A stretch of DNA of 64,000 bases from Astropecten irregularis (taxonomy: Eukaryota > Echinodermata > Asteroidea > Paxillosida > Astropectinidae). Positions within the stretch are counted from its first letter, which is position 1, and each line of letters starts with the position of its first letter. The notes beneath the pieces were generated by a model. That model was not told the DNA's origin, did not search any database, and saw only the letters and a list, made by a program, of their open reading frames with translations. This document shows, one piece after another, positions 1,638-42,046 of this stretch. The stretch covers positions 28,830,001 through 28,894,000 of the forward strand of contig OZ020244.1 in the NCBI GenBank assembly GCA_963971285.1, given 5' to 3'. Both the position numbers and the translations under genes were made by a program.

Positions 1638-1725
1638 ATGGAAGGTGGCTATTTTCTCTCGACGGCTGTTACATGTGTGATTTTATTCCTAGCCGCCCCG
1701 CCAGGCTGCCAGGGTCAAAACCAAT
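1638..1725 (+). CDS. Adhesion gene exon 1: signal peptide
   Basis: The ATG at 1638 opens MEGGYFLSTAVTCVILFLAA followed by PPGCQGQNQ, a clear signal peptide with likely cleavage near CQG. The exon ends in phase 1 at a GTAAGT donor (1726). A polypyrimidine tract and CAG end at 1587, so a 5' untranslated exon further upstream is possible. Confidence 0.8.
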
Positions 1726-4700
1726 GTAAGTTACTTCGATATAAACATTGGTGCTGTAAACAGCAATTTGATGCTAGATTATAACTAGGTATGTGATGAC
1801 AAATTGTGGAAAAGCACCTTTACGTACATGTATACCAAATTTCAGACATTTTGCTTTTGCAATCCGTGGAAAAGTAAAGACATAGGGCGTTTACGAAACG
1901 GAGGCTCAGGCTCCGTCTCAGGCTCCGGCTCCATTTTCATGAATCTAAAATCTAAAATAACGGGTATCAAAAAAAGAGGCTTTTAGCTGCGGTTCGGAAG
2001 AAGATTCTCTGGTTTGAAAAAGAAAATAGAGCTCCAGCTTCATTTAAAAACCACAACCTATGTTTTCACCATGGATGACATTATGAAGCCGAAACTGGAG
2101 CAAAGCTTTGGGAAAGGCCCAAAGTGGGCGAAGTGGTATTTGTGGGCGAAGTGACGCGTGGGCGAAGTGGTTGTGGGCGAAGTGGTTATGGGCGAAGTGG
2201 AAAGTGGGCGAAGTGACCGACATCCATTCAAAGGCGGCTGGGTAAGCTGTGACGTAAGCCACTTGAAAACAAAGGGAAAAAACCCTTGTTTAAAATATTT
2301 TGAGTGGTGTGGTTTAGAAACGAACCCAAGATGAATCAGAGCTCCGTATTACGCCGTGCATCATTTATAATGTCAAGATTAGCCAAGAACCAGTGGATCG
2401 AGACTGGCCAAGATTATCAGTTGAAACCCGAGTATTTCCCTGTTTACAACCCTCACGATACACGATGTATAACGATTCCCTAATCATTTTGCTTCACTTT
2501 CGTGAGTCCCTGGTGCATTATAGTGTCGATTATCAAAGATGACTAAAATAAAACTGAAATAACTGACGTTATCGAAACATAAACTGAAAACGATATTCTT
2601 TTTAAACTCAGAATATATTTTATGTAAACGTGTTTGTTTTAGAAAAAAAGTTATCTGCCAACTTTCACTTTTACACTGTGAATGGAAAAGTCATTCTGAA
2701 TCATACTATTTGCCATGAAATAAGGTAAAAAGAGGAAGAGGAAAAACAATAACCAGTGCTTTTATATACCGTAACGCAGCACACATCTATCATTGTTCCT
2801 AACTTCTGTTTTAACAAGTTCAATGACTTAAAGAGGATCTTCAACATACTCAACAAACCTCACTTTATTATTTTTTTTATGAAAAGTGACGTCACGAAAT
2901 CACACAGATTTTGTCTGCTGCCCCCATTGACGAAATTCAGACAGATTCAATTTTGGGGTAGCTTGCGGGTTGAGCATGTTGAGAGAAAAATCATAAAAAA
3001 AAACACTCTCTTTCTGAGTTCAGTGTGAGATAATTATTTTTTTCTCATGTCAAGTAATTTAAGGATTATAGTTCTGACAAATGAAGTGAGGTTTGTTTAG
3101 TGTTGAAGACTACTCTTTAAAATTAATCCAGTCAGTTTCCCTCGTGGTTATTTGGTGATTAATTTTTTTTGTTATTAATGATTGTTAGTTTTGTTTGTCA
3201 ATGTACGCGTATAATTATTTTGGGGAAATGTTTTCAGCGCCTTAAAGGTATTATATCATACTTAAAGGGATGGTACAGAACTGGTGTTTGCGACAGAACC
3301 GTTGCTGACAGTGAAAGCACATTATGTAATCCATCATATACTCTAACTGACAAACCTGTAGAAGTTTGAGGTCAATCAGCCATCTGGGTCACGAGAAAAA
3401 AAAACCGTGTACGGAGAACTGTACACATTTCAGCGAATGAATAAAACGCTTCGAAGCGATTTATTCCAATCGGAAAATAGTTTCATTTATTTCTCAACGA
3501 ATATGGCATTTCAGACAAAAACATTTCATGGGATGTTTTCTCCTATCATCACCATTATACTGTGTAAGTTTTATGTGAATCTGTGAATATGAATTGTATT
3601 TTTGTCTTACCAATTCTGTACCCTCCCTTTAAGTAGCATACCGAAACAGAAATGTTTATACATAATAACCTATAACTTACATCGTATGAAGATGGTGATG
3701 GTAGAAACATACCGTTAACATTTTGTGTGCCTGAAATGCTGTATTTATCCAGGAAATAGTATAACCTATGACCGAAAATTATTTTTACCTTTTAAAGGGA
3801 CTCAGGGAGCATATAGGATTTGCAAATGTGCGTTTTTGGCTGAATTTGGAGACGTGAAGGTCTTAAACTTCCTTACAGACGTTGTTTCATGTACCTTTTA
3901 CGCTTTGTTCATCTGGATAGCAGAAATACGGCCGAAATAATCTTGCCCACCTCCGAATCCTTCACGGTTACACCGCGCTTTCGAAATGCCAAAAAAAATC
4001 GTTCGGACGAACGATCTTTTTAAAAGACACTAAATCTTGATTTTTTTGAAAAACCCAGCATCTGATGAACCAACATTTTTCATGGTGACTGTTTGCACTG
4101 TTTACAAACTGTTGAGTTCATTTTCTGTCTCAAACTCGATAATTTGCTTTGGAGGCCTTGCAAATCCTGTACGCTGCCTTTAAAAGATAACATAACGGTG
4201 ACAAGATCTTAAAAATCCGTGGCCGTTTTAAACTGTTTTCTCAAAAGTGCCGCACCGTATATGGGACTGAAATTTTCACAGATGACTGTTACTGTATCTA
4301 TCTTGATATTTTTGCCTATAAATCTGCATTTCGTTGACAAAAACAAAGTATGACTATGATATCACCTTTAAAGGTAGTATCATACTTTGTTTTTTGTCAA
4401 AGAAGTACAGATTCATGAGCAAAAATATCAAAACAGATACAGTAACAGCCACATGTGAAAATTTCAGTCCCATTCGGTGCCCACCTTTTGAGAAAATACT
4501 GAAAATGGCCACAGTATTTCTTAAGTCTTTTCTCTGTTATTTACTTATTTTTTATCTTTTAAAAGATCAAAAAGATTTTCAGTCGTTGTTTTACTAATTT
4601 CTGGATAAATACACCATTTCAGGCAGAAAAATTTTAACGGTAGGTTTCTACCAGTACCATCTTCATACCCTGAAAGTTATACGTAAATCTGTGAACATGT

Positions 4701-7700
4701 CTGTTTTGGTTTCTTACCAGAGTATGATACTACCTTTAAGATGGTGGTGGGGGGGGGGCACCTTATAAGTTTTGTGTTGATCCCAGAAGGTGCTTGGATT
4801 TATTGGTGGTGGGTATATTAACAAAATAATATCATTGTTGGTTTGAAATTTGGCCGCCAGGATTCGGATCGGAGAAATTTTTATGATGCTTCGTTACATT
4901 CGATACTTTTCTTCCTAATAGCTCCGCCGACATTCACAGCACAGCCGACTGAGACAGTCTATTACTTGCACGATACCAAGCCAGAGGTTGTACTTCCCTG
5001 TGCTGCCAATGGCACAAACCCATTACAGTAAGTCAAAGTGGAATAGATAACTCGACCGTCATCGCCCAGAGCCTTGTTAAACGGGGTGGGGTTGGGGGGA
5101 GTGTACACCCCATAATTTCATTTTGTATGATGATTATGTACACGTACATTGTGCACAAACGTATTATGAACGTACGACCCAGCTACAGGATCAGTGGATC
5201 ACACCCAAGGTCTGAGAACCTGACTTCACTCCACTGACCATAGATAGGCCTAGGCCTTCATCTTTTCGTTCCAATGAAAATGACAGCATGCATGCATCAC
5301 CAAGAATGCCTCGCTGGTACCTTGTAAAACCAACACGCAAGCAGTGGTAAAACTCCAAATTCAACACGCATTGTAACGGTGGCTCTCACTCAATTGTGGG
5401 ACACTGACCATCGGAGCGATTTTAATTCAATCACAATCATTAATTGTAGGGTTACACAATGATAACTATAACCTAAGAACAGTTTACTGAAGTTGCTTTC
5501 CCGTGTAAAACTGTATTCAAAATGAGCGATCCAAATTATGATACAGTAGCAGGTTCCACCCCAAATGAGTGTATTTTGTTGATTTTTGAGTTTTGGCCTA
5601 TACCAACTTCTTGGCGGATATGCGATGGCTAGCTCAAGTTGAGGCTCGCCCTCCAAGGACTCGTTTATTATCGCCAACAGAGGGCGCCAGACACACTGCT
5701 CAATGGGCATTATTAATTGTTCTCTGTTGAACAGGTACCGATGGACAAATAACGCCGTGGCTGTAGAAATGGGCGGCGAAGGAGCGAGAGGGAACCTGAT
5801 CGCCAACGAAACCGGCAACTACACCTGTTTGGCTAGCAATGCATTCGGAACTGCCGTATCCAGAACGGTTCAAGTGAAGTTTGCATGTCAGTGTTATTAT
5901 ATGAAACACTTCATTCACAAAGAGACAAATCCATGTTTTTTTGCTATGATCTTATAGCGACAAGTTTTTGAGACTTCACGTCAACAGCGCACGCGCACGC
6001 ACAACAGCGCAAGCGCACGCACAACAGCGCAGGCGCAAAACAACGCGCGAATGCTCACATTTGCGTGCGCGTGCGCTGTTGACTTGAAGACCGGTTCTCA
6101 AAAGTCTCCCATTAACGTTTTCCCTTTGACAAATTGCATGCGAAACACAATAGTTTTCGCATTGGAGTTGTGCTTAAGAGAATGTAAACGTTATTCAAAT
6201 CATACACTTGAAAATGGAGGCTAAGGTTTCAAGAGAGTTTTTGTTGTACATCTAGTTTCCTCATCAGTGTAGTCTCGAACCGGAAAACATTGTTTTTGTG
6301 TTTTTACCCTCCTTTTGTTTTGATGAATAGAGGACAAAAGCCACTCGAAAGAAATGGTGTATAAGTGTTACACATGAGTTTGAATTGTGAAGTGCCTTTC
6401 CGTGTTTTTGAAATGATCAAAAGGGGTGATATTAAAAGAGCGCAATTTTAACCCACCAGATTTGGACCCATTTGACGATTCCGACAGCCCAACCACCTTC
6501 TCGGTGGAGGAAAGGGACTCCCTGGTGCTGCCGTGTAACGCTCCCCCAGGCGACCCAACCCCGCTGGTCCTGTGGACCAAAGACGACGTAATAAACGTCT
6601 TCTCCAACAACACCCTGGCCGCATCGTGGGACCCCGAGCGCGACCTGGCCCTGGACCAGGCAGGTAACTTGGTGTTCCTGCACGCCTCGACGGCGGACGC
6701 CGGCCGGTATGAGTGCAAGGTCAAGTCACCGGTGATCGGTACCCACTTGTGGCTCTCCGTGAAAAAGGTCGTGACAGTCACACAAGGTCTGTAGCATTAT
6801 ATTAAGGATCACTTTCACTTTTTCCATCGAGAAAGAAATCAAACTGTTTCTCACTATAGTTTGTCACACTTCCACTCTCTGAAGGTAGTTTATGGGATAA
6901 TCGGATCAAAAACATCATTTTGATATCTGAAAGATTCATTGTGATCTGTAAAATGGACAAAAGAAAACAATGGTCGCCCATTTAACCACATCATTAATTG
7001 CGGTCATTTTTCGAACCATTTTTTCACACTTGTAATACGATTGTTTGCCATATTTTATGTCCTATAAAGCCGAATTTGACAAAAATCTCGACAAACGGTC
7101 TTCTGTTTTGTAAACAAAGAAAGATACGTTTTTCATGCCCACCTTCTTCGTGGTTGCAGTGATATCGGTTTTAAGAGGACTTGATTTCTTCGAAATGGCA
7201 CCTTTTGATTTTCAATCCCCCATCCCGTTTTCTGAAAGCTAGATCCGCCCCTGATCGTGATTATTTATCCCGATACTTCTTGCTTCCTCAGCGGCCGGGG
7301 CTGGAGACACTCCACCGAGAATCCTTGACGGACTCGGGCAGACAGATGCCATCCGCGGTCAAGATGTCAAAATGTATTGCTTGGCCACTGGACAGTAAGT
7401 CTCGCTCTTTAAGATCAAGGAAGCCTTATTATTGCATAATGCGTCCTGTTTGATTGAGGTTCGAAACGGTAGGACTGGGGTCATGACTGTTCATACAAGC
7501 ACGTTTGTCACAGCACTGGAAATATTTTCTGGATAATTCATTCGTTTTAGAATCTGTTCTCAAATTCAGCGACAATGACACAAGATTCAATTTCAGATAA
7601 CAGAGAAAAGTATTTCGTTGATTAGTGATATTGGGTAGCTTTTGATCAAGTTACGCGTATTGTGACCAAAATCCGTGCAAATTCGAAATTGCGCCTGTAC

Positions 7701-16907: not shown

Positions 16908-17277
16908 TTAAAGGTAATATCATACTTTGGATTTTTGTCAAAGAAATACAGATTTGTGGGCAAAAATATCAAGGAAGATACAGTAAAAGTAATCAGTGAA
17001 AATTTCAGTCCCATGCATACGGTGCCCACGTTTTGAGAAAACAGTGAAAAACGGCCACAGTATTTCTTATGTCTTTTCTCTTTTATTTTTGATCTTTTAA
17101 AAGATCAAAAAGATTTTCGGTCGTTGTTTTACTTATTTCTGGATAAATACACAATTTTAGGCGGAACAATTTTAACGGTATGTTTCTACCACCACCATCT
17201 TCGTACCCTGTAAGTTATACGTAAATCTATGAACATTTCTGTTTTGGTCTCTTACCAAAGTATGATAGTACCTTTAA
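16908..17277 (+). mobile_element. Family A TTAA element
   Basis: TTAAAGGTAATATCATACTT to GTATGATAGTACCTTTAA, with the central GATCTTTTAAAAGATC palindrome. Complete, non-coding, intergenic. Confidence 0.88.
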
Positions 17278-17482: not shown

Positions 17483-17856
17483 TTAAAGGGATGGTACAAA
17501 ACTGGTTTTTGCGACAAAACCGTTGCTAACAGTGAAAGCACATTATGTAATCCATCATATACCTTATCTGACAAACCTCTAAAAGTTTGAGGTCAATCAG
17601 CCATCTGGCTCACGAGAAAATAGTGAAAACCCGTTTACACATTTCAACGATATTATGCGTTCATAATAAAATGTTTCGAAGCGATTTATTCCAATCGGAA
17701 AATAGTTTCATTTATTTCTCAACGAATATGACATTTCAGACAAAAACATTTCATGGGATGTTTTCTCCTATCATCACCATTATACTGTGTAAGTTTTATG
17801 TGAATCTGTGATCTTGAAGTGTATTTTGTCTTACCAATTCTGTACCATCCCTTTAA
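17483..17856. mobile_element. Family C TTAA element (copy C2)
   Basis: TTAAAGGGATGGTACAAAAC to CAATTCTGTACCATCCCTTT and AA. It is close to C1 (3262-3632) over its full length, including TCATTATACTG and GAAGCGATTTATTCCAATCG. Confidence 0.88.
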
Positions 17857-19181: not shown

Positions 19182-19649
19182 TCACTTGCAAGTGTACAGG
19201 TCCTTCACCGACTCGCAGATCTTGCACTTCACCTCGCAGCACCAGATGAACTTGCAGTCGCATCGCTCCACTTTCCTGACCTCCTGTGTGTTGTAACCCC
19301 TCCCGCAGCAGAGCAGGTCGCAGCTGTCCGCCCCCGTGGACGTGCGGTTGCACTCCCTGCCAGACGTGCCCATGATCCCTTTAGACGAGTCGCGTACGCA
19401 GTAGTTGGGCGACCGTTCCAGGTGCACCATCTCGTCCGGGGCGATGGGTACCTTGCGGGCGGTTCGGTCCTTGCGACGGAGACGCCGCTTGGTGGGACGG
19501 TTCAGGATCTCCACGGAGTTCAGGTAGCGCTTCTTGAGAAGGTCGCCGATGGCCAGGAAGTTGGGCATGGTGTTCCAGCACGACTTGATTGTGCAGGAGC
19601 CCGACACGCCGTGGCATCGGCACTGCCTCGTCATGAACTGCTGGATGAG
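19182..19649 (-). CDS. Wnt16: Wnt16 exon 4: C-terminal cysteine-rich domain
   Basis: The acceptor TCTTTTCTCAG precedes [19 protein letters not shown]. The exon carries the palmitoylation loop, a basic linker ([15 protein letters not shown]) and the C-terminal cystine-knot part ending in KDLYTCK and TGA (19184-19182). All the family's C-terminal cysteine motifs are present. Confidence 0.97.
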   Translation of the reverse strand, partial: LIQQFMTRQCRCHGVSGSCTIKSCWNTMPNFLAIGDLLKKRYLNSVEILNRPTKRRLRRKDRTARKVPIAPDEMVHLERSPNYCVRDSSKGIMGTSGRECNRTSTGADSCDLLCCGRGYNTQEVRKVERCDCKFIWCCEVKCKICESVKDLYTCK

Positions 19650-22600
19650 CTGAGAAAAGATAGAGAGAGGAAAAAACAGAAGTCAAAATCAATGACAGAA
19701 ACTTAACCCTTTGTCCATATTCTCTCATCCATTCATGTATGCTTCCATCACTTGCATATTCTTGTAGTTCGTCATTTAGCCTTTGAGAAAGATCCTGCTA
19801 GGATCGAAACGCGCCAGGCCCTCCTAACTCCAAGCATTTGATATATTTCAGCTCATTTTGGCTGATGAGCAGTTTGCAGCAGTTTATTACTTGTAGGCCC
19901 TATTGGGAGACAATTTAGAAAAAGAACTGCAAGGGTGTGTTTTTAGTGCTCTGACTCATGGTCACTGATTCGAATTTGGTTGGCTGTTATCGTTGAGAAT
20001 CGTGCATGATGGCTGTGACTGTAGCCGTATCCGTATCCGTACAAACGTCTACGACCAGGGCTGTTTAAAACAAAGCAAGAAGCAGCGTTGTTGTTCATTA
20101 TAGCTGAAGCTTATAGCTATATATTCATAGTTCAAGCCACTTTTCCTGCCCAGTCTCGGTTACAATGAGCCTCCAAACGAACTAGAGAACACGCCAAGCT
20201 GGCTGCGATGAAGACCAGCATGCAGGAAAGCTGCATATGCAAACACTGAGGGCCTTTTCGAAACGGAGGCTTAGGCTCGGGCTCAGGCTCCGGTTCCGTC
20301 ATCCATAATGCTGAAACTGATACAGGTTGTGGTTTTTCATTGGAGCTGAAACTCTGTTTTCCTGTTCAAGCCAGAGAATCTACTTCAGAACCGCTGACAA
20401 AAGCCTCTATTTTGATACCCGTTGTGTCAGAATGGATTCACGAAATGGTGCCGGATCCTGAGCCTGATCCTACGGGCCTTTACGAAATGAGGCTTGGGGC
20501 TAGGCTTGGGATTTTATTTTGCTACTGCCATTTTGTGTCCTAAATTAAATGAAGGGCTTGAGATACATGACGAAGAGCCTTTCTTCGGCTTCGTCGTGTG
20601 GCCAAATCCCTTCATTTCGTTTTGTGGGTTTCAAAATAGCGGTAGCGAAATAAGTCCCAAGCCTAGCCTCAAGCCTGGTTTCGTAAAGGCACCAGGAGCC
20701 TTTCTCAAAGCTCGGCTCCGGCTCAGGCTCCGCCTCTCCATTTCGTGAATCCATTTCAAAATTACAGGTATCAAAATATATGCTTTTGGCTGCAGTTAGG
20801 GAAGTATATCCCAAGCCTAGCCTCAAGCCTGCATGGTTTCGGATAAAGGCCCTTGGACCCAGAACCAGTGCAGCGCCCTCTCGTGTCCACCGTCAACAGG
20901 AAAAAGGGCCGTCCCACAAAACTTCAGACGCACAATAACATTTCAGAATTGATATTGACCATTCCATCCCATTCTGCAACACGCCATAAAAAGTCACCGA
21001 TGTCCAACACAATTCGACTCATCGCATCACTTGAACTCTCAGTGAACTCTATCTACAGTAGACGCAGGTAATTCAAGATAATGGATGACTGGTCGTTCCA
21101 CCAAGACAAATTTAATCAGATTCAGACGCCGGTCGGTTTATGAGCCGGCTGACGTTCACGGTTTTTCCTCTACATATTAAGCTCCGTGTTCGGTGTGTTT
21201 CACACGAAACCGCACTAGTTAAAGGTATAGTATCATTAGAAACCAAAACAGAAATGTTCACAGATTTACGTATAACTTTACAGAGTATGAAGATGGTGAT
21301 GGTAGAAACCGTACCGTTAAAATATTTCTGCCTGAAATGGTGTATTTATCCAGAAATTAGTGAAACAACGACCGAAAATCTTTTTGATCTTTTCAAAGAT
21401 GAAAAATAAAAGAGAAAAGACTTAAGAAATACTGTGGCCGTTTTTCACTGTTTTCTCAAAAAGTGGGCACCGTATGGGACTGAAATTTTCACAGGTGACT
21501 GTTACTGTATCTTCCTTGATATTTTTGCCCATGAATCTGTACTTTTTTGATAAAAACTAAAGTATGATATTACCTTTAAAGGTACAGTACAGGATTGCTA
21601 ACATAGGCCTACTACTCAAACATAAAATGTTCACAGATTTACCCATAACAGTGTATGAAGATGGTACTGGTAAAAACATCCCGTTAAAAGTTTCGCCTGA
21701 AATGGTGTATTTATCAAAAAATGTAAAAAAAAAAAACCGACCGAAAATATAGTTTTGATCTTGGGGTTAGATCAAAACCATTCTTTTTGTTTCATTATTT
21801 TCAATAGAAAAGTTGAGTCGGGTATCACGGCGCTATTTTCTCGTGATTCAGATGTCCGTTTGAGCTCACATTTTCACAGGTTTATTATGTCATGCACATA
21901 ATTATTAGTGTGCTGTTCTGTGACCTTTACCAATCACGTATACCTGTAAAACATTATGGATAACATTATTAATAAGGATTATGTCAGTTACGCCAGAAAA
22001 GTCTTGTCGCGTGGCACAACAACCCTATAAACAGACTATAATTATATACATGGGCAGATTTCGTGGTTGGGGTGGCGGAAACCCGACTTGAACATAATAA
22101 AGCACATACACTCTGTTCAATGTCAAGGTTTAAACAAACTTAAACTGTCAAGATAATGATAATCCAACGTGTAGATGGGGCCACAACCATGCAGATATGG
22201 ACAAAGCAGTAACGGGCAAATCGCCTGTTACCAATACACATACGGTACCTCTCTCTTGGTCAACGTAATAGTAATATGAAATTTATCCGACAGTTTTTGG
22301 TTATTTTTCCACGGGAGTGAATGTGTCAAACTACAACAAAAAGGCCAATCAGTTGACCCAATACTATGGGCTTTAGTCGCTTCAAAGGTCCACCAAAATA
22401 ATGTTGAAAGATCGATTAACACACAAAAGGGATAATTCCAGCCGTGCGTGATACACAGAGGAGGCAATGGGATTAGAGATACACGCTGAAATCTGATACT
22501 ATAGGGTTGAAAAATCATCAAAGTGAAAAATGCCGCGAATATGACAATATCACTACAAACTTATCCTGTACAGAGACTATACAGTGCTGGTAGTTCTTTC

Positions 22601-25600
22601 ATTGTCAAACGTTTTTCCCATTCAGGACAAGCTTTGCGGTTTCATTATCTCTTCCTTCCTCCATGATATATTCAACTTTCAGAAACTGGAATGTTTGAAA
22701 AGTTCACTTGCTTTTTAGCAGAAACGCTTTTGGCTATTGGCTATATGCAGGGAAGGGGTTTGGGGTTAATTCTTCAAGGTTTTTTTTTTACAACAAAGCC
22801 GTGAGATTGATGTTTTTGGGCGGGAAAGCTGCACTTGTATTGTAGTCTGTGCATCTGAGGTCAAATACCGTGAAAGGTTGAGGAGAGTTACGACTGGGAG
22901 CAAAGATGGGAGGGGATTGGGTATAGCTGTTTCTCTACACAGGTATTCAAGAAGCCAATCCGATTGAAACTGTTTCACATTTCACGAGAAAACAAAGTAT
23001 ATACACACAATCACGCAAACATGCGATTTCAATTCCCAGGGAGCGGCACTTGTCAGTAAGAATCCCTCCCCTGTAATTGTAAGAAGTTGTGACAGCTTGA
23101 AGGTCGTGCCAAAAAAGAGAGAAAACGGTAGAGAAAAAACCCACTCCGCTCCCGCTGGAAGTCAAGTGTACATAGCGCGACGAACTGTTTCAATTTAGGC
23201 GGTGTTGTTTCAGCGTCGTGTCGGGGTGCCGCTGGGCCGTGTTGGGTTTACCGCGCCCATGCTGTGCTTAATTGGTCAAACATTCTCGCGAGTCGGTTAG
23301 TATGGGATTGGTTGTCCGGCCGTAGCGGGTCGCCTCGGCAAATCTCACGCAGGTCACGGCAAACAAAATCCCCGACAATCAATTTAACGGTAAAGAGACA
23401 AAATCTATCATTCTTCATTTTTTTTTTATTGAGAGGTGAACAAAGAAAGACTGCCTGGAGCGAGATTCGGACCGGCGACCTCCTGAATAACATACAGCCG
23501 CTCTACCAACTGAGATATACGCTCTACACGTTGGTGGTGTCCCAAAATAGTCAATTATCTTTGTTCGTCTAGGCCTACTTTAAAAAAAATCTACCTATCA
23601 CAAAAACAAAATTCCTCGAGCTGCCGATGTTATTCGCTCGCTATTAATGCGCGAGGATTACATTGTACTTTTCTTTAATTTACTGTATCATCTTTTGTCC
23701 CTAAAAGACATTTTCAGGCGAACTCCGAAAGTAATATTGTCTGTAAATAGTAAATACCTCATACATGGCCGGTAACTGACACTCGAAATATTTTGTAAGC
23801 GATGTGCTTCCCCCATCTGACGAAGTATAACTGTTATATGACTACCTTGCATGCTTTAAAAAGTTTTTATTGCAACTTCCAAATCGGGATATTGCCCAAA
23901 CCGTTATCATTGAAGAAGACCAATTAACACTGTACATAATTATCTATTACAGGCTGTCTCCTGACAAAACTGCAGGAGACCATGCCAGTGAAACAAAGAA
24001 TGATTCCGTTGAGGAAATTCTTGTTGCCTTAAAGGTCGTACCGTCGTATCATACTTTGGTTTTTGTCAAAGAAATACAGATTCATGTGCAAAAATAAGTA
24101 ATCTATGAAAATTTCAGTCCCATACCGTGCCAACTTATTGAGAAAACAGTGAAAAACGGCCACAGTATTTCTTAAGTCTTTTCTCTTTTATTTTTGATCT
24201 TTTAAAAGATCATAAAGATTTTCGGTCGTTGTTTTATTAATTTCTGGATAAATACACCATTTCAGGCGGAAATATTTGAACGGTAGGTTTCTACCAGCAT
24301 CATCTTCATACCCTGTACGTTATATGTAAATCTGTGAACATTTCTGATTTGGTCTCTTACCAAAGTATGATACTACATTTAATTCTATACGATATGATAG
24401 TTCAACTGACGTGAACATTTTGGCGGGAAAATACGAGCGAAGATTGAGCTTATGTATTGTATTTGAAATAAAAAGCATCGATATTCGCAATTTGTCTTTT
24501 TCTTCCTCTTGTACATTTTGTTACTCTATCAGTGTTTGCCTCAACGGCTGGAAATCATAATTTTAACAAAAGTGTCCTCTGAATACAGAAATTAAACAAT
24601 GGGAGACTTTGGAGAACCAGTCTTGAGTCCACAGCGCACGCGCAAACCATGCTTGCGCAATTGTGAGCATGCGTGCATTGTTTTGCGCGTGCGTGCGAGT
24701 GCGCTGTTGACTTGAAGACCAAGGGCCAATTTCACGGCCCTGCTTAGCACACAAAATTGCTTAGCACAAAAATGGCTTGCCAAATGAAACGAAACACCAT
24801 TAAACATTTTGTTTGATATTCATGGTCGGCAAACAACGGCCAAAGAACAATTGCAAGTGATACACAACACATGGAAATTTGGTTGTTAATCCTGTTTTCA
24901 TTAAGACAGAAATTTTCTTGGTTAGCACATTTTTGTGCTAAGCAGGGCCGTGAAATTGCCCCCGGTTTTCCAAAGTCTCCCATTGCTCAGGAGTGTACGG
25001 AATGAAAAACTCGAAATCGGAGCAAGTTTATAGAGGAAAACATTCAGGCAGTGAGCTGATGTTTAAAAAGTCAGCGGTTGTACAATTATTGGTGAGACTT
25101 TAAAGTGCCAGAACAGCGCGGTCTGAGAGTCGTCACAGTCGCCGCTAAAATATCATTACGGGCTGGTAATGAATAAATTCGATTGGGTTTGACCGTGGAA
25201 AGGCTCGTCGGGCCGGTGGGTCTGTGTCTCATGGTGACTGCCTCCCCCGGTGTGAGGTTTGTTTTGCCCTTCCCGCCGCCGACCGCGGATTTTTTGCCAA
25301 GATATTGGGACTAAATTTTCTGTATCAACACTCAAGGCGATGTGACGTGAGTGTATTATGATCGGCCCCAAAACGGTTGGTCTACAGGAGAGGAGGGAAA
25401 AAGGCAAGTGACGGGCCAAGGTCCTTGGGTATACTAGCCTCCATTGGTGAACTATTACAAACATTTCCAAAATCTTAAAAATCAAAATCTCTTTTTTTTT
25501 CTATGACCAGGGGCCAATTTCACGGCCCTGTTTAACACAGAAATTTGCTAACCATGACATTTCTGTGTTGAAAAAAAACCAGGATTAACAACAAAATGTC

Positions 25601-28600
25601 CATGCTGTGAATCACTTGTGATTGTTCTTTGGCATAGAGATATATACATTTTTTGGCATGTTGTTCGCTGACCATGAATATCAAATGGAATTTTAAATGG
25701 TATTTTGTTTTATTGGGCGAGACATTTTCCTGCTAAGCAATTTATTTTAGCTTAGCTGTCATGCAGCTCCATAAAATTGGGTTAGGTTGTTGATGGTATA
25801 TATACACATGTAAATATTATCAATGATTTTTCGTTGGGGAGAAGGTATGCTAATGGGAGACTTTGGAGGACCGGTTTTCAAGTCAACAGCGCACGCGCAC
25901 GCAATTGTGAGCATGCGCGCGTTGTTGTGCGCGTGCGTGGGCGTGCGTGCGCGTGCGCTGTTGACTAGAAAGCCGGTTCTCCAAAGTCTCCCATTAGTCT
26001 TGCTTTTGCAGATGGCATACTTATAAATTTCTTCGTAATAATCATAGGCCTCGTTATAACCGAATAGTGAAAATGAACAAAATACATGTAATAGCGGCAA
26101 TCTTGGGAGTTTGGGTCTGAATAAATACTAATTGTTAAAAGGTAGGCTATAATGGTATTTTGGCGGTCTATCTGTGCTGTGCAAAGTCATCTGATGACAC
26201 GGTTGGTCATGTTTGTCAATTTGTAAGCCTAGGCCTTTGACTGTCGTGACTTGCCGTTGAGGCTATGGATTCGTGATGCAGGTTTGAGCCGAACATTCGA
26301 GTGCCAGCCATAATACTGCATGCCGTTTTACCGGCTTGTTCACACTCGTTGCCTTTGGCTTCAATTAATACCTCAGAATGTCCCTTCAAAGCTACCATAG
26401 TGTACTGACATGAGAATAATGTCAACGATTTTGATTTATGACCGGAGGACGGCATCGTGGCAGGGCCGTCCAAAATCATAATCGCCTCGGGCCCTTTTCT
26501 TCATATCTCCACGGCCACCGACGACATAATAATAACATACAGGCCTGAGGCTAGGGCCAGAACCCACCCACGACATGGCCTGGCCCTGCCCGGTCCAGTA
26601 TGCCTCTTTCCGATCGATGACTGGAATATTATGTCATTATACAGACACTCGTTTATCACCAGGCAACAATGAACAGAGTCTGCCCCCAATCTTTGTCACT
26701 GTTTAATCCGGGATTGATCTAACAATACCAACCGCCATCAAATCTCAGATTTTACGACCTAAAGAAAAGAAAGAAAAATGTCCGACCTTGCCAACACGCC
26801 GTATAAGCTAAGCGTGCAATTTATGGCCTATTTGACCAATTCTTTTTCCTCTGTTGCTTTTTTTTTACGAGACTGTTTTTTTCTTTCTTTGCGGGATGTT
26901 GACTGTTTTGTAATCAGTGTGAGAAAATAAAAAGACTGACGAGGAAGCAACGGGGATTATTCTTTAAGTTTACTTTTTTTTTTGGATGGGAACAGTTTAG
27001 TTGTTGTCACATAAAAACTCGTAATATTATGGTTGACGAACACAAGCAACTGCCGTTTCGGTTATAAACCACTAGTGTTCTGAGCGCGAGATGCGAAACC
27101 GCAACACTTAGCATGACTAAAACGGAAGACATTTTATCATAAAAGTGCAGATATCTTAACGGTTATTACTTCTAACTCAAGTTTCATTCCTCTTCTTCTT
27201 TTTATCGCGTTGACATTTCGTAGGTCATGCAAAGTACATACGATGAAACCTTTGGCCGAAACGCACTCAATCGTCATAAGAAGACCGACATTTGTTCATT
27301 TTGTTTTCATGACGTCACAGACGATATTTCGGGGGCCAGAATTACGTTTGACATTGAAGCCTTAAAAACTATTTATCTGTGTCATGTTATTATAAGTTGC
27401 GTGATGTGTACATGTATAGCATACCTCCCTGGTTGGAACATTTTATACGTTTGCTTAAAGTTAGGACTTAGGAGGGCCTGACGCGTTTCGATCCTAACAG
27501 GATGTTTCTCAAAGGCAAACTGATGGAAGGACAAGAACATGGAAGGGAATAGAAACACAAATGTATGAATGAGGGAGTGAGGACAACGGGAGAGGGGATT
27601 GGTCACACACAGAGGGGTCAGGTAGGCAAGATCAAAGTTGCCAGACTACAACTTGTATTTTATACGTTTCAGATTTTATTTAAACTGGATCAAAATAATT
27701 GCAAAAGTTCAAATCGTATGATGGAAACCTTCCTCTTCAATTGGTTACATGCACCTAATGGCGGTGTATATGATTGGTATAATATAAGGACCATGATATG
27801 GATTAGCTTTATTGTTTAGTAGCAGTTTGAAAGCGTAAGTTTACATGATGACTGAAACCAATATTATCTTTGAACCATTTCCCTTGTGCTGTTATTCTGA
27901 CGAAAAAGACCTAAATATCAGAGGGTAAATTTAAGCTCGGAATCAATTGCAATGATACACAGAATCCACATTTTAGCTTGTTTTTCGAAAAGCGAATCCG
28001 AGTTTGACAAAATGTATCCCTCAGGTTTTGTTTTGAAAACAAGATGATTGTAATTAATTATTTACAACCAAACAAAAAGAGTGTAAAGAAAGAGAAAGAA
28101 GAAAACACGACCAAGGACTTATAACTTAAAAAACAAAATACCAGAGATTCCTCAAGCTGATATCATCATCAGCTCCATGACGTCACTATTATGTATACCA
28201 GAGGTGCGAATCATCACTTCCCATGCATTATGCCTATATACCAGCCACCAACCTCCCGCCGTTCTTATTTTTAATCAGATGTTAGGTAGGTATATAAATT
28301 TTTAATACCAAGGGCAAATATTTGTTATCATTGCTAAGTAGAGCTATTAAGCTGATATCGGTATCTCGTAACAATATTGTGGCGATAGGTTCGGTCTTAA
28401 GATGTGGTATACGGGCCCGGCATGCTTTTACACACGCATTGAGAATTTTGATGGTGATGAAGTGTTTAACGACTGGTTCCCTTTGTTTCTTACATTGTAC
28501 AGGTGTGTGTTTGTGCATTATACGAAAGGTATTGCATACGCGCACGTGGTCTTATTCCTCCTTGGTGTGGAGTTCGTGGAAACATTACACGGCTGGTCAA

Positions 28601-31600: not shown

Positions 31601-34600
31601 AAGGATACCCCCAATCATATCCTACACAGGGCTGCAATGCTTCGTAAGTCCTACGATTGATAGTAAGTTACGATCATAGTTTGGTGAGATGACGAGCATG
31701 GGGCCTTCAGCACTCATAACAATAGGAAAGAAACTGATGTTGTAAAGTGACGGAGAAAGAATGCAAGTACATGTAGCTTGCCACACTCACCTGTCGCCCC
31801 ACCTCGTTGTTGTGCAGGTTCATGGCGCTTCGTACCCTACTCTCCTCCTTCGCCCCACTACCTTCCTCCTCCTCCTCCTCCTTACGTGCCCGCTCAGCGG
31901 CGTCTACGAACTGCCGTGCGATCTGGATGCCGTAGTCCAGGTTATCGCTGCAGCCGCCCCACTGCCAGCCTTCGTCGTCCATCAGGCCGTTCCGGGACGA
32001 GTCGCAGGAGCAGTCAGACAGGTTGCCCGTGCTGCAGGTCCGGGTGACGGCGTGCACCACGCCAGCGCTGGTGATGGCGTACACGAACGCCGTTTCCCGG
32101 CTCCCTGTCGGAATGAAATCAAAACAAAATGGGGAAACAGAAAATGAATCGGATATCATCTCTGGAGCTGACCCTATTATTCAAAATTCCTGGGATCATT
32201 CCACTATGACAAAAAGAAAAGAAAAGATGGCGCCACATAGTATCTACATGTACTTCTCAGCAGGAGCCAAAAACCTCTATTATCTGTTGTTCTAAAAATA
32301 ATGTATGCTTGAATTGGAGTAGTAAAGGCCCCTGGATGGACGTCCTTAATGGGAGAAAGCACGAATATATAACGCAAGCAACAAGATGGATATCATTTGT
32401 TTTTATGTCGAATGTATATTATGGGAGTAAATGGGTCCCTCCACAACTTGTGTCTGTGATGTTTTTCATGCATTATCATTCGTTTAAATAAAATTCTATA
32501 ACATATACATGGAGTTTTTAAACACTCTTTTTACCGTATCTATCCGTACACTCGTTTTGAATAAATATATACATATCAATATTGGGCCCATGCCCTGTAT
32601 TTTCGTTCACAGGGTATAGGCTTGCACCGGCATGGTTTTGCCATCATCTTATGCAAACATTGAAGGGTATATTCAATGATACATGTACATGTATATTCAA
32701 GTTATTTCATGTTTTCCACCAGGAAAACGTCTTCATCAAATTACTTCATCTAAAAGCATTTGAGGACACCTACAGACCATCTTTGCCAAAACACCGGACC
32801 TTGTCAAAATGTACTGGTCTACAATCAAGGTTCAGATGAATCTTCCTTGTTATGATAATAAATCATTAATTCTTTCACGAAAAACCGGTTCGGTTCAAAT
32901 CTATACCCCGTTGCCTGAATGGTAAGTTACATCTGCGATTCTGCGTGAACCCCGCGGGTGCACTGAATTCAAAAAAGCTTAAAGGGTCTCTGCAATAGGA
33001 ATATTATGACTTGAACATGAATTGTGCCAAAAAGCAACTGTTTAATGGGGGCCTGTGATTTTTAACCACTTCCCCGCACTGATTCAGGGTTAACAACAGG
33101 TATTTTGGTTTGTATGCTAATTATAATTTCCATATTCATGAGCAATGAACTGTGATGTCATCTGGGTAACTGAGAGCAGTAACCCAATTGATTTGTGCAC
33201 AAAAAGTTGGCCGGTTGTTTTCTAGGTTTACTGTGAGACCTTTTCCTCCTCAATGGGTTTTATTGTGCCGAATATGTTAGTTTCACTCAACTGGTGGTGT
33301 AATTTCTTGGCCAGACCATTTCTGTGGGTCAAGTTTGCCTCTTCATTTAAAAAAAATTTCATTATACTTTTGCTGTTGGTCCCCCACATGAGCATGCACG
33401 AAAATCCCCCATTTTGCAAAGCCATTCAAAGGAAAACCAAATGCTAGTTTGAAACCAAAATAAGACTTGCCATTCATTATCTGTCAGTATATTCTCTGTA
33501 TAAAAGCAATAAAATAACCTGACTGAAAAAAGCACTGCAGGAACCCTTTAAATTCAGGCTGACTTCCCCAACAGCCACAAACACAGGACGAATTGGTGCC
33601 TTACGAAATCCGCAAAGAAATTACCTCAGCCCCAAAGCTTAATGAAAATGTCCACCTCACAGGATTGGACTTGAACCCCAGAAGCCGGCCTTATCGTCAA
33701 TAAGTCTCAGCAATCATGTTGTAAGATTTATACGGCGGAAGCTAACAAACAAAATGGACGGATGATGGCCGGTGAAATCCCCCCGTGTCCGGATGGTTTG
33801 GGTTCGGCCGGGTCTCAAAACATCACCATGAGCGGTCTTAACATCTACCGGTAAACCCAATGCTTTTCGAATCTGAAACAGCTTACGCCCAGATCCCATA
33901 ATACCCCGTCAAAAAATCTTTTGACAGCCTGGCCTGTTCCAATTCCAGAATCTGCAAAATCTCTGGGGCTCTCAGATCAGAGAGAAAAAAAAACTCCCCA
34001 AAAAGTCCTGTGTCCACATTGCAAGACCTGATGAAATTACAAGCTATAATTGGTATCGTTATTGCTGGAGTTTACTGTCTCGAATGCCAATGCAAGATCA
34101 CACAGTGGCGTGGCCCCTCGCTCTAGTTTTTGGACTTGAAATCAATATCATTTTGATATACTGCGATATCGAAGATTCTGGAATTGAGCAGGGAAGGAAG
34201 GCAATCGGGAGACATGCAGTCCGATCACCCTACCCCGTGGACTGCCCCAGGGAAGCCTCGGATACACGGACAAGAAGTTGTTTGGATTGAAAAACGATCG
34301 CCTCGTCTGTGTTTTGATTTCAAAATCTGGTTTTCGAGAAGGTGAGAAACCCCGCTCAAGGCAAAAAAAAAAGGGTCGAAATTGAAACAATCTTCTTTCC
34401 ACCCCAAATCTAAGCTTTTGACCTACTTTTGTTACAAATATAGTTGATTGATTGATTGATGTTTTTGGTTCACTATACGGTTGACATGTCTATCGGCTAA
34501 ATTCAAAAACTGCCTTTTTAAAAAGAGAAAGATCCTGTTAGGATCGTCGAAACGCGTCAGGCCCTGCTTACTTTAAGCATTTGATATAATTTCAGGTCAT

Positions 34601-37600
34601 TTTGGCTGATGAGCAGTTTGCAGCAGTTTATTACTTAAATTTAAAAACTGTATAATGTCCGGGGTGGATTGGTTGACAGTTTGGTAAAATTATCGATTAA
34701 TTGATTGAAGGGCTGATTATGCGTTGATCAAGAGTTGAGTCACTTTTACAAAAAAGCTGCCTAAATTGAAATTCTGCGTTCCCCAAATATTTGACAAAAA
34801 GAGTTCTTTTAGAAGCGGCTGCGTTAAAAGAAGCCTAAAATCCATTGAGACTAAAAGAGATTTCAGCCAAAATAAATAATCAACACCTTTTTATAATAGC
34901 CTAATAATCTCGGATAGAAGAGCAGATCAGAAGAAGGACATTGAAGAGATAATCTCCTTTTGATCTCTTGCCGACGTGATTCCTCTATAGGTGGATCGAG
35001 CTTTAAGAATTTAAAGTAAAGCTGGATTATACAGGGAGGATTACGGTGGGATTAACCTTAATACTATTTGGTGTCACAAAAAATAAAATTTTCAACATCA
35101 CATTATTATAAACTGGCAACTTTGTACCTCCAGAAAGGCTACTTGAAATGATTCTTTAGAACAATGAAATAAAGGGGCTAGTGGTGCAAGGATTATAGAA
35201 GAGGGAGACGAGACTTGACACAGGTGCAACGTATAGCATCTTCACAATCATTAATCCTTTCTGATTCGATCGACATCTCCAAAAATATATGAACAAAACA
35301 CCCAACATATAGATATATAGGCTTAAAGGGAGCATATAGGATTAATTTGCAAGGCCTCTAAAAATGTTTTATTGAGTTTGAGACAGAAAATGGACTCAAC
35401 AGTTCGTAAACAGTGCAAACAGTCACCATGGGTCCGGAAATCTTGGTTGATTTTTGATATGACAAAGTATGAGTGCTGTCTTGTGACCTTTACCAATCAT
35501 GAATTGTACCTTTAAGCCCGTATAAAACAGTCGGAAAAGACCAATTCGAGGGTTGAGGCAGAACAACAACTTGAACAATATGTTTCTGCCATCACCATCT
35601 TTATACCTTGTCAGTATAGGTAAATCTGTGAAGATTTCTGTTTCGATATGCCTAAGTATGATACTATAGGCCCTACCTTTAAAAATAATTGTTGCAATTT
35701 ATTGTTCAATGTACCTTCTATTGCACGTTCCCTTATACACGCAGACGTTTTTGCATTTATGCTACCATGACCGAACAATTTCCCCCCAAAGAAAATCTGT
35801 ATCAGGCGGAGTATTATGGGACTCTTTCAGGCCACACTGCCACATGGACGGACCACATACGAAAAGACCTTCAGCTTCTTAAACTTCTTAGAAGGTATCA
35901 CTATCCTCATAAAAGAGGTTTCCCCGCTAATGGATGAATGGAGCTTAAGGATAAGCTGGCAATCTATTCACTGGGATCCGAAACATCGTAAAAAGGCAGA
36001 GCGCTGGAGGATGCATGAATACCAGTCGCACGCGGGGCGTTTTAATGGGAGGACTGTTGAGACGGGCCGCTGCTGAAGGCTATACCAAAGAAGACCAGGG
36101 TGTCAGACTTGTCCTTTTCAGGACAACCGACACCAAGGGACGTCCTTGCAGGGCACTGCCCAAAATAATTCTCCGACTAGACAACTGCTTTGTCTCCGGG
36201 GTGTTAAGGGGGAGGAAAGGGTTGAAGATGGTGAAGAAGTGTCCCCACAGACAACACAATAGGGAAAAGCTGTCAAATTAAGGACATAATGAAGTCAATA
36301 AACCACCCTATGAATAACGCAAGGAATATGCACGGTACCGAGTGAAACTGTTTATTGTACAGGGTATATTAAATGTGTTAGAATCTCTTAGGGAAGATTC
36401 ACACGGTACTGTCTGTTGTCTCGTAATTACTCATCCTTGCTCATCTCAAGTTGAACCATAGAGTAAGGTCTCTATGGTTGAACAAAATGCCAGAAATGCC
36501 AGATTTCAAACGCGATTCAGCCCTGTGGGCCCAATTTCTCGGCCCTGCGTAGCACACAAATTTGCTAACCATGACAGTTCTAATAAAAACAGGATTAACA
36601 ACCAAATTCCCATGTTGTGTATCACTTTTGAATTGTTCTCTGGCTGTTGTTCACTGACCATGAATATCAAATGGAATTAATGTTTAATGGTGGTCGTTTT
36701 ATTGGGCAAGACATTTTTGTGCTAAGCATTTTTTTGTGCTTAGCAGTTCCATGACATTGGCCCCTGGTCTCAGTGATGTGACGTCAATATTAATGTGTCG
36801 TGGTTTATTATAATGTCATAATGCAGACGTTTTGTTCTTGGAGTTCTTGGACAATAATTCCGGAAGTTGTTCAGTGTTACACGGAATAATAAATCACAGA
36901 TTTACGTATAACTTACAGGGTATGTAGATGGTGGTGGTAGAAACATACCGTTTAACTTTTTTTCGCCTGAAATGGTGTATTTATCCAGAAATTTGTAAAA
37001 CAACGACGGGAACTCTTTTTGATTTTTAAAAGATCAAACATAAAAAGAAAAAAGAAATACTGTGGCTGTTTTTCACTGTTTTCTCATAAAGTGGGCACCG
37101 TATATGGGACTGAAATGTTCACAGATGACTGTTATTATATCTGTCTTGATATTTGTGCCCATGAATCTGTATTTCTTTGATAAAAACCAAAGTATACCTT
37201 TAAGCTTAATGCAGGGGCAAAGTAGCAACGAAAACAAAATGATAATTTACCTGTTTTAAGGACATTCCCGAAAGCATTCTGCTCCTCATCGTGAATTGTA
37301 CAGTTCCATCTCTCCTCCCGGAATTGCCTCTGACACTCTGTGATGCCCAGCCGGGCACCCTCGCCGATGACCGGTATGGCGTCCGGTTTCTGCTCGCACA
37401 CGACCCGCTGTTCGTTGGCCAAGTCCGGTACGAGGGAACACACGGAGCCGCCGGTCATGCCGCTGGTGGGCCGTGGAGGGGCGTGATGAGCGCCGGTCGG
37501 GGACAGGCCGTTGGGTTGGTCCACCGTACCGAGGGAAGCAATACCTAACCACCTGTGGTAGATAAAAAAAGAGAGAGGAAAATTGTATTCCTGTATATTT

Positions 37601-40600
37601 TTTTTAGGGTAAACGAGTTAAGCTTGTAACATTATTTCAATGATTCATTTTGTTCAACTTCATCGCCCCAAATCAACAAATAGATAAATTATAAGGATAT
37701 TAAAAGAAAAATCTATGACTAAATAAGCTGCCATATTACAAGAAAAAATGAAGACAAACCGTAAATCTTTTTTTTATAAAATCCAATTTGTTTTTCATTA
37801 TCCCCATCATTAAACGTACTTTGTTTTTTGTCAAAGAAATGCAGATACAATAAAAGTCATCTGTGAAAAGTTCAGTGAAAACAGAGAAAATGGCCACAGT
37901 ATTTCTTAAGTTTTTTCTCTTTTATTTTTGATCTTTAAAAAGATCAAAAATATTTTCGGACATTGTTTTACTAATTTCTGGATACATACACCATTCCAGG
38001 CGGAAACATTTTAGCAGTATGTTTCTACCAGCACCATCTTCATACCCTGAAGGTTATACATAAATATTTGAACATTTCTGTGTTGGTTTACCAAAGTATA
38101 ATACTACATGTATATTAGTTTCAAATATTTTAGATTCAATTAAGACAAGAACTACTAAGCGTGATTTGTGAAAGTTTCGCCTAAAAAAAAACAGACACCG
38201 AGAAAATGGTTTTGCCAAAATCGGCAACTGGGGTTTTCGATGAAATTATAGCGAAAACAATACATATAGGCCTAACTTCCTAAGCCTACAGTATTTAGAT
38301 ACTATACTAATATTCAAAATTTTCAAATACGTCAGCGAAAGATGAAGAATTTGCACATTTTGTATAATGAAGAACAATTTACAAAGTACCACTTTGTTGA
38401 TCAAATACCAATTATTTTCCCTCATAATCTTATCAATAAAACTGAGACGGGCGAAGGATCAGAACGACCCCTTTTGATGTAGCATCATTGTCCCTTCTCA
38501 GTGGCTCTTCCCGTGTTATGCTTGTTCAGCTGATACATGGAAATGATTCATGACTCGTTTGCTCACTGAGTAATAAAAACTACGGATTTTACAACCCCAG
38601 ATGTTTGTACAGAACTGTGTTTTTCCTTCGGTATACTCCTACTTGTAGTATTAACAGCTCAACCTAGGATCACCAAGGCCGACTCACAAAAGAAAATAAG
38701 CGGTCAGACCCTCCAGACGTGAGAGAGCTGGGAGTTTTTTTATTGCAGTGTTTTCTATTATAATGCTTTCTGACGGCTGAACAGTCTCCCGAACGTTAAA
38801 AGTGTGTTTTCGCGTTGCTTTTAACAAATTGAGTCCAATTTTCTGGCAATTTTCAAATCCGGAAATTCGACCTCCCGGGAGAAGCCCACGGTTTTGTCTC
38901 GGGTATTATAGAAATTGACAAATCAAATTCAGTGACGGTAAACACTCCACTCGCTGATTATTTGCAGTGGGTTACTGTGTATGATCTGATATAATTGGAA
39001 CTGACGCGGGAACCGTCGGTACATGCTAGCCCCGTGTCGGCATGCATCACACTGAGCCGTCTGTCCTGGCTAAGGCTAAAGTGCGCACGGGTCTATGGGA
39101 ATTGAGGCTGTAGCCGTTAGCATTGTTTCAAGCCGCAGCCGCATCGATCACGCTCTTTCTCGTGAGTTCTCGTGGCGAGTCTGAGGCTTAGGCTGCATCT
39201 GCAATCTGTTGTCTAGAGCTAGGTCTAGGTCTTCGCTCCATTAGAAATACGCGGAGACACCAAGACCTAGCCATAGCTCTGGAAGCCCGTTTCGGACACG
39301 GTCTGAGAATCATCTGTGGTCTGACTGTGATGGGTTGCGAGATTGTTCGAGGAGGGCAAACATATCAAAAACTGAGCGGGAAACCTTATTCACACCATAG
39401 AGTTATTACCATAATACATAATACTCGCAGGAGGAAAAGATAATTTACCCACGTGACTAGTGGCTACAATAAACCGTTGGCCAAAGGCCTATGAAAAAAA
39501 TATATAAACACAGCAAATTTACTTCAAAGTTCTTAAAAGACGTAGCATTGACCTTGTAAAGTTTGTCCTTACCAAAATGACAAACTTCCTTACATTGAAA
39601 GTTTATGCAAATTAATGACACCATCCCATAATATTGCCATAGTAACCCAACTAGCTATAATAATACATGAGCTAACTATGGGCGTTTACGAAACGGTGGC
39701 TCAGGCTCCGTCTCAGCCTCCGGCTCCATTTTTGTGAACAAATTCCGAAATAACGGGTTTATCAAAATAGAGGCTTTGGGCTGCGGTTCTGAAGTAGATT
39801 CTCTGGTTCGAAAAGGATAACAGAGCTTCAGCTTCAATGAAAAACCACAACCTATATTTTCAGCATATTGATGACAGAGCTGGAGCCTGAGCCTAAGCCT
39901 CCGTTTCGTAAATCCCCTAAAAGTAGGTTTGAAATTAGTTCGCCGGAGACATGCTTCTCTTTCTTTTCAAAGACCTTCTTTTTTCGTGACTCAGCCTGCT
40001 CTCACGGCAGACGGCCAATGCCAATGGAGTTCAATATTGACCGTAGGGGGATCACTCAATCGCCATCTTACTAGGGAACACAACCCCCTCCCTATATGTT
40101 CACCGAATTGTACATAAATTTCAATATTTCAATACACTCTAAGAATATCGTCAAACATTCGTTATCGTCAAAATATGCGTCGTCTTACATTCTCCTGAAG
40201 ACGGCCAGAGTATATACCGGCAGGAACGTCGAGTTAACCGGCTCTTTTCAGAGCTATACAACTCATAAAAGAGTGACATTTATGTCCCAAATCAGTTATA
40301 ATATTTCCGCCGTGTAGGCCTTAATTAATTTATGCACGATCAAAATAGGAGGTTGAAGCTGTGAAAACAAGTTACTAATAATACTAGGCAATAAATGAAC
40401 AGGACACGTTAATATTTTACAATAGGCCTAACTGTTTAATACATTCAAGAATGCATCATTGCATCACACAAATAAAACAAAAAGGAAAATGCACTCTAAT
40501 AGTATATAGTTGAACATGATAGGCACTATTGGAGGAAATGATAATTATCGGTGATCGTCAATAAATCATACTCACATCCAGGAAGCTCTGGAAGTTGCTG

Positions 40601-41680: not shown

Positions 41681-42046
41681 GTAAAGGTACAGTACAGGAT
41701 TGTTAACATTCCCAAACAGAATGTTCACAAATTTACGTATAACTTTCAGTGTATGAAGATGGTGGCGGTAGAAACCTACTGTTTAAACATTTCTCTCTGG
41801 AATGGTGTATTTATCCAGAAATTAGTGAAACAACGACCGAAAACAGTTAGTGATATTGGGGTAAGATCAAAACCGTTCTTTAAGTTTTATCAAGAAAATG
41901 TTCGGTTTTTTTTCGCTATTTTCTTGCGACTCAGATGTCTGATCGAGCTCAAATCTTCACAGGTTTATCATTTCTTGTACATGCTGGATCAGACAAAGTG
42001 TGAGTGCTGTGCTGTGACCTTTACCAATCATGTATTATACCTTTAA
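41681..42046 (+). mobile_element. Family B TTAA element (copy B2)
   Basis: GTAAAGGTACAGTACAGGAT then TGTTAACATTCCCA; right end TGACCTTTACCAATCATGTA then TTATACCTTTAA. The left TTAA is mutated. Confidence 0.85.

What the first reader, a model, noticed from the sequence alone, without database searches (positions are those of the whole stretch)
3242..4739. Four TTAA transposons nested and stacked in one intron
Seen: family A copy A2 is split by a family C copy within its left terminal repeat (TTAA at 3262-3265 and 3629-3632) and by a family D copy at the TTAA of its central palindrome (3792-3795 and 4180-4183). A second A copy abuts it, sharing one TTAA (4368-4371). Dropping D1 and one TTAA rejoins the two A2 halves. 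The stack is thus a natural experiment showing TTAA target duplication for D and the relative ages: A2 older than C1 and D1. Known: TTAA duplication is typical of piggyBac and a few other superfamilies. Inference: all these families are moved by related enzymes.
Basis: partly seen in the sequence, partly recalled or inferred. Interest (0 to 1): 0.75.

Follow-up and report, generated by a model that had tools for sequence, protein, structure and literature searches.

The report
Nested Kolobok-type miniature transposons in intron
Short jumping-gene remnants that insert at the four letters TTAA have landed inside and beside one another in an animal gene's predicted first intron; the stack is real and dates the insertions, but such stacks are, to within roughly twofold, as common as random insertion predicts in a genome so full of these elements.

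Summary
Every stated TTAA is at its coordinate. Leaving out C1 and D1 with one TTAA each gives a 375-base A2 that aligns end to end with other A copies. C and D copies elsewhere stop at TTAA (C: 12 of 13 copies at both ends; D: 20 of 30 loci at both ends by a strict rule). The C1 target exists empty at 26 exact 25-base matches genome-wide. Divergence from consensus suggests the order A2 (14-17%), then A1 (6.9%) and D1 (6.7%), then C1 (3.0%). All eight termini in the stack read TTAA|AGG, the Kolobok signature; two Kolobok-like elements of this host end the same way, while the piggyBac ends read (one per family, two families) begin with C. Kolobok is thus the likely mover, but no autonomous element with the A-D terminal 15-20 bases was found. 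Stacking is near chance: 4 events against 3.1 expected in the window; genome-wide A|A junctions 409 against about 249, C|A 63 against about 30. The families fit a known kind. In passing: a region of host contig C11 whose listed transposase remnants all lie on one strand.

The parts
3242..3265 (-). A2, outer end (cut off by C1); TTAA 3242-3245
3262..3632 (+). C1, 371-base C element with TTAA at both ends
   Evidence: second window copy at 17483-17856
3629..3795 (-). A2, middle part between C1 and D1
3792..4183 (+). D1, 392-base D element inserted in the central TTAA of A2; 8 extra bases at its left end
4180..4371 (-). A2, remaining half
4368..4739 (+). A1, 372-base A element, head to head with A2, sharing TTAA 4368-4371
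4548..4573 (.). central palindrome of A1 holding TTAA (the matching site in A2 was used by D1)
1638..1725 (+). predicted first coding exon (ATG to GT donor) of the host gene
   Evidence: read by eye; no RNA evidence
1726..4921 (+). predicted first intron (GT...AG), which holds the stack
   Evidence: read by eye; exons 2 and 3 give an Ig domain
4922..5027 (+). predicted second exon; with exon 3 (from 5735) it encodes an Ig domain (Ig_3)
17483..17856 (+). second C copy; its similarity to C1 stops at the TTAAs
21219..21579 (-). A copy sharing TTAA 21576-21579 with B copy 21576-21949: second stack in the window

Best explanation
Four non-coding miniature transposons (two A, one C, one D) inserted one after another in one intron, each later one into a TTAA inside or at the end of an earlier one, each duplicating the TTAA. 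Their ends (AGG..., 5'-RR) and target point to transposases of the Kolobok superfamily supplied in trans by elements elsewhere in the genome. Shown: ends, TTAA target, empty-site variants, order of nesting, high copy number. Inferred: the enzyme, and that one enzyme group moves all the families. The order was A2 first, then A1 beside it and D1 in its centre, then C1 (the order among A1, D1 and C1 rests on divergence only). The stack needs no special targeting: these elements are so dense that about one TTAA in five lies in or at one.
For: Coordinates and termini. Alignment across joints. C copies: 12 of 13 with TTAA at both ends; in 81 flanks of C and D copies, similarities only (by my reading) where the flank is itself an A or B element. 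D loci: of 30, the best-scoring ones and D1 itself among them, 20 with both strict TTAA ends, 7 with one, 3 with neither. 26 exact empty C1 targets. C1 and the C in the same place in another A copy (L003) share 1 derived site of 11 and 10, so they look like independent insertions. Divergence: A2 16.9% from the A consensus and 14.0% from a 4-copy subgroup consensus that includes it, A1 6.9%, D1 6.7% (D mean 4.2%), C1 3.0%. Kolobok-like elements L064 (6,672 bases) and L065 (7,310 bases): TTAA at both ends, all four ends AGG, a THAP exon and long DDE-type ORFs. piggyBac of the host: one end each, TTAA|CCCTTTGC (L069/L070) and AA|CTCTTCC (L071/L072, TTAA intact in one of the two). Literature: Kolobok = TTAA target, 5'-RR ends, unlike piggyBac (PMC9587614, passages; PMC6004289, passages). 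Chance level of stacking.
Against: No autonomous element carrying the A, B, C or D terminal 15-20 bases was found among the five Kolobok-like loci read (L064-L068), and termini could be read for only two of those. No Pfam model reached its cut-off on the L064 protein (best a weak MULE match, E 0.0088), so the Kolobok assignment rests on THAP, DxxH after the second D, termini and TTAA. Genome-wide junctions exceed the uniform-random expectation 1.6-fold (A|A) and 2.1-fold (C|A). 10 of 30 D loci and 1 of 13 C copies lack a strict TTAA end on at least one side.
Confidence: 0.85

Rival explanations
1. The MITEs are moved by piggyBac transposases, which also use TTAA.
For: TTAA duplication; the host has many piggyBac genes with long open frames (90 matches to PF13843).
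Against: All eight ends in the stack start AGG, not CC[C/T]T (motif as given in PMC2872659, passages). The one end read in each of two host piggyBac families starts with C, while the four ends of two host Kolobok-like elements start AGG.
Confidence: 0.08
2. Composite units moved as such: C inside A, and A|A pairs, were copied as units rather than formed by separate insertions.
For: C is found at the same position of another A copy (L003); A|A junctions recur at 409 places.
Against: C1 and the L003 C share only 1 derived site, and the outer flanks differ. Empty sites of the same type exist. A|A is no more in excess than the mixed C|A junction (1.6 against 2.1-fold). The 409 A|A loci were not read one by one.
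Confidence: 0.05
3. The elements actively prefer the ends or the central palindrome of other such elements (landing-pad targeting).
For: A|A 1.6-fold and C|A 2.1-fold over the uniform expectation; the central TTAA of A is used by D1 here and by another A in L005.
Against: The excess is small; uneven element density along chromosomes and the looser mismatch rule for junctions could give it (not modelled). Window stacking 4 against 3.1 expected; of 29 other D loci 5 lie in or against A elements (two with worn joints), while 21% of flanking TTAAs (136 of 647) lie in or at A-E elements.
Confidence: 0.1

Closest known systems
Kolobok superfamily DNA transposons (PMC9587614; PMC6004289, passages read)
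   Same: TTAA target duplication; 5'-RR (here AG) ends; Kolobok-like elements in the same genome with a THAP domain and a DDE-type transposase
   Different: A-D are about 370-390 bases and non-coding; no autonomous partner with the same 15-20 terminal bases found
T2-MITE family of Xenopus (PMC6004289, passages)
   Same: TTAA target, terminal AGG, short, high copy number
   Different: T2 is defined by AGGRR: C1 (AGGGA at both ends) fits; A and B (AGGTA) do not; D1 fits at one end only (AGGGA / AGGCA)
CMITEs of corals, linked to piggyBac (PMC2872659, passages)
   Same: TTAA-flanked MITEs that also stack: tandem arrays, and a CMITE inserted in the TTAA inside another element
   Different: CMITE ends begin CCC and match piggyBac; about 100 bases long
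KolobokP composite-like elements (PMC9587614, abstract and passages)
   Same: Kolobok ends arranged in multimers
   Different: KolobokP has long direct terminal repeats and an internal coding region; the A2/A1 pair is inverted and, by divergence, formed by separate insertions

Membership tests
Kolobok superfamily (as non-autonomous members) | TTAA target duplication | tested here: met
   C 12 of 13 copies, D 20 of 30 loci strict at both ends, single TTAA at unoccupied sites
Kolobok superfamily (as non-autonomous members) | 5'-RR and YY-3' termini | tested here: met
   all eight ends in the stack read TTAA|AG...
Kolobok superfamily (as non-autonomous members) | mobilised by a Kolobok transposase (autonomous element with the same terminal bases) | tested here: inconclusive
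   Kolobok-like elements L064 and L065 present with AGG ends, but their further terminal bases differ from A-D
T2-MITE family | terminal AGGRR at both ends | tested here: not met
   met for C1 only; A1 AGGTA, D1 AGGGA/AGGCA
piggyBac superfamily | CC[C/T]T terminal motif | tested here: not met
   none of the eight ends in the stack has it; the one end read of host piggyBac family L069/L070 does (TTAA|CCCT)
piggyBac superfamily | TTAA target duplication | tested here: met
   shared with Kolobok, so not discriminating
MITE | short, non-coding, terminal inverted repeats, high copy number | tested here: met
   371-392 bases; A ends 56,754 places at up to 1 mismatch against 1 for the reversed control; C ends 3,430 against 2. 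No coding function was sought inside them beyond the ORF list.

The most novel reading that the evidence does not exclude
The conserved TTAA in the central palindrome of A is a built-in landing pad: A-type MITEs keep it because later insertions there spare host DNA, so the MITE population grows partly inside itself, and one Kolobok enzyme group serves A, B, C and D alike.
Probability: 0.08. Interest if true: 0.5.

Novelty: new member of a known kind. Interest (0 to 1): 0.27.

Why it matters
It gives a worked, genome-checked case of how to tell Kolobok-type from piggyBac-type MITEs (same TTAA, different ends), shows several families in one host whose ends look fit for one enzyme group, and shows that a striking stack of insertions can be about as common as random targeting predicts. 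The wider value is mostly methodological; the stack itself is ordinary in a genome of which the sampled DNA is about 13-16% covered by these few families.

Tried and rejected
Autonomous partner: a THAP-domain search (107 matches listed) and a Kolobok-protein search (68 matches listed) led to L059-L068. L059-L062 look like THAP plus a DDE type other than Kolobok, and L063 like a host gene (read by eye). L064 and L065 are Kolobok-like with AGG ends; L066-L068 are diverged Kolobok-like genes whose ends could not be read. L073 and L074 were fetched to find the ends of an L066-like element and did not help. C ends on contig C1 that seemed unpaired or too far apart (L075-L078) proved to belong to C MITEs, one of them (L077) about 150 bases longer.

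Composite transposition of A-with-C was considered because L003 repeats the arrangement; disfavoured on derived sites. A 573-base element (window 32979-33551) at first seemed to be the end of the L067 Kolobok; it matches a whole MITE copy there.

Paper searches (9 of 10 allowed) did not list these families. They are word searches in one open library, so 'not described' cannot be claimed.

Limits of the counts: the element list was drawn up by hand (26 elements) and the simulation is simple; D loci are the best-scoring of 3,482 first-look candidates (40 scored); the C copies came from searches biased to C or to this stack; N of TTAA (3.24 million) is scaled from 352 kb of fetched sequence. An estimate there of A ends (69,291) was too high against the real count (56,754), and only the latter is used. 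In one search an estimate of C ends from a sample was replaced by the real count. The C|A count of 63 includes at least one D|A place (the L026 locus) and a few at 2 mismatches that read like B ends. The host species was not identified.

Full report
What is there. The stack was read base by base. From left to right: A2 begins with TTAA at 3242; C1 occupies 3262-3632; A2 resumes to 3795; D1 occupies 3792-4183; A2 finishes at 4371; A1 runs from 4368 to 4739. Each boundary is a TTAA, and neighbours share it. A2 is in the opposite orientation to A1. The sequences 1638-1725, 4922-5027 and from 5735 read as exons with a continuing frame (by eye); the last two encode an Ig domain (Pfam Ig_3, E 1.1e-07), so the stack sits in a predicted first intron. 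There is no RNA evidence.

Do the halves rejoin? With C1, D1 and one TTAA each left out, A2 is 375 bases and matches other A copies over its whole length (1-375 against 16908-17277, 21219-21579, 24029-24382, 49932-50299 and 62621-62970, at 75-80%). The alignment runs through both joints. In 12 of the 14 other copies aligned there the D target holds TTAA, in 2 it is TTGA, and none is occupied. The C target reads TTTG in the consensus, so at first the C1 story looked odd. A genome search eased this: 26 places match the A end with the TTAA variant exactly and with nothing inserted, and 15,513 places match at up to 2 mismatches (the consensus is 2 away), against 0 for the reversed pattern. Only the 25 matched bases of those places were seen. 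Another locus, L003, holds a C in the same variant site of a different A copy; the two C elements share 1 derived site, so the site was probably used twice independently.

Do C and D end at TTAA elsewhere? Of 13 C copies read, 12 have TTAA at both ends and one has TAAA at one end; 81 flanks of C and D copies were compared, and by my reading the only similarities are between flanks that are themselves A or B elements. Of 30 D loci (D1 among them), 20 have both ends by a strict rule, 7 one, 3 none.

Ages. Uncorrected divergence from consensus: A2 16.9% (14.0% against a subgroup consensus that includes it), A1 6.9%, D1 6.7% with a D mean of 4.2% over 30 loci, C1 3.0%. Nesting alone proves A2 before C1 and D1. 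That A1 is younger than A2, and C1 the youngest, is inferred from divergence.

Which enzyme? All eight ends in the stack begin AGG after the TTAA. Published passages state that Kolobok ends are 5'-RR with TTAA duplication, unlike piggyBac (PMC9587614), and that T2-MITEs end AGGRR (PMC6004289). I tested this inside the host. A THAP search led to two Kolobok-like elements of 6,672 and 7,310 bases, TTAA at both ends, left ends AGGGAAA and right ends AGGGCAATTCCAGGCC and AGGAAAATTCCAGGCC, with a THAP exon and 650- and 671-residue open frames. The five Kolobok-like loci L064-L068 show DxxH after the second D (read by eye), a motif that PMC9587614 gives for Kolobok among other superfamilies. The host also has piggyBac genes (90 matches). 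For two piggyBac families one end each could be read: CCCTTTGC after TTAA, and CTCTTCC (there one of two copies shows the TTAA); their other ends were not found. So the A-D ends follow the Kolobok rule in this very genome. No Pfam model reached its cut-off on the L064 protein, and no autonomous element with the A-D terminal 15-20 bases was found, so the mover remains an inference.

Is the stacking special? In the window the A-D set covers 13.2% of the DNA, and 85 of 443 TTAAs lie in or at these elements; a simple simulation expects 3.1 stacked insertions among 26, and I count 4 (P of 4 or more 0.38). Around the 30 D loci, 136 of 647 TTAAs (21%) lie in or at A-E elements, and 5 of the 29 other D copies lie in or against A elements, two of them with worn joints. 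Genome-wide, A ends number 56,754 and A|A junctions 409 against about 249 expected, taken as (ends/2) squared over 3.24 million TTAAs; C ends 3,430 and C|A junctions 63 (at least one really D|A) against about 30, taken as A ends times C ends over twice the TTAAs. The mixed junction is in no smaller excess than the A|A one, so there is no sign of like seeking like.

Other features. A1 and copy 44365, C1 and D1 each have a palindrome near the middle (GATCTTTTAAAAGATC in copy 44365, with TTAA; CGCTTCGAAGCG in C1; ATCGTTCGGACGAACGAT in D1); the second C copy and B do not show it clearly. The meaning is unknown.

Verdict. The elements look like members of a known kind (Kolobok-type MITEs), and the stack is an ordinary product of high copy number.

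Noticed in passing
Host contig C11, about 19.3-22.03 Mb (outside the window): Transposase remnants listed by three searches lie all on the minus strand here (rows counted by eye: Kolobok 46 of 46, piggyBac 20 of 20, THAP 3 of 3), while the listed ones just left of it (18.94-19.21 Mb) and at 22.08 Mb are on the plus strand. Several rows are pieces of one copy or duplicates, so they are not independent, and the lists hold scored candidates only. It resembles a one-strand piRNA source locus of megabase size; a fourth-family test (PF13359) did not complete.
   Followed up: partly
Host contig C30, about 3.28-3.79 Mb: 8 of 8 listed transposase matches on the plus strand (Kolobok 2, piggyBac 5, THAP 1).
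   Followed up: no
window 32979-33551: A 573-base TTAA|AGGGT element of another family (E); copies also in L015 and L067.
   Followed up: partly
window 41682-42046, 56696-57067, 21576-21949: Family B: left half like A (about 80%), right half unlike A but with short matches to C; looks like a mosaic of related MITEs.
   Followed up: partly
window 37135-37617, 31707-32180, 19182-19682 (minus strand): Three open stretches matching Pfam wnt in order: exons of a Wnt gene.
   Followed up: no
window 61959-62273 (minus strand): Open stretch matching the amiloride-sensitive sodium channel family (Pfam ASC).
   Followed up: no
window 47685-48300: Tandem array of units mostly 10 bases long.
   Followed up: no
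window 6002-6113, 25852-26005, 62350-62503: A dispersed repeat rich in cacgcgcacgc-type sequence, three copies.
   Followed up: no
Host contig C1:10839178, 10844405, 10849639, 10854840: Four exact C ends spaced about 5.2 kb apart on the same strand: probably a tandem repeat that contains a C end.
   Followed up: no
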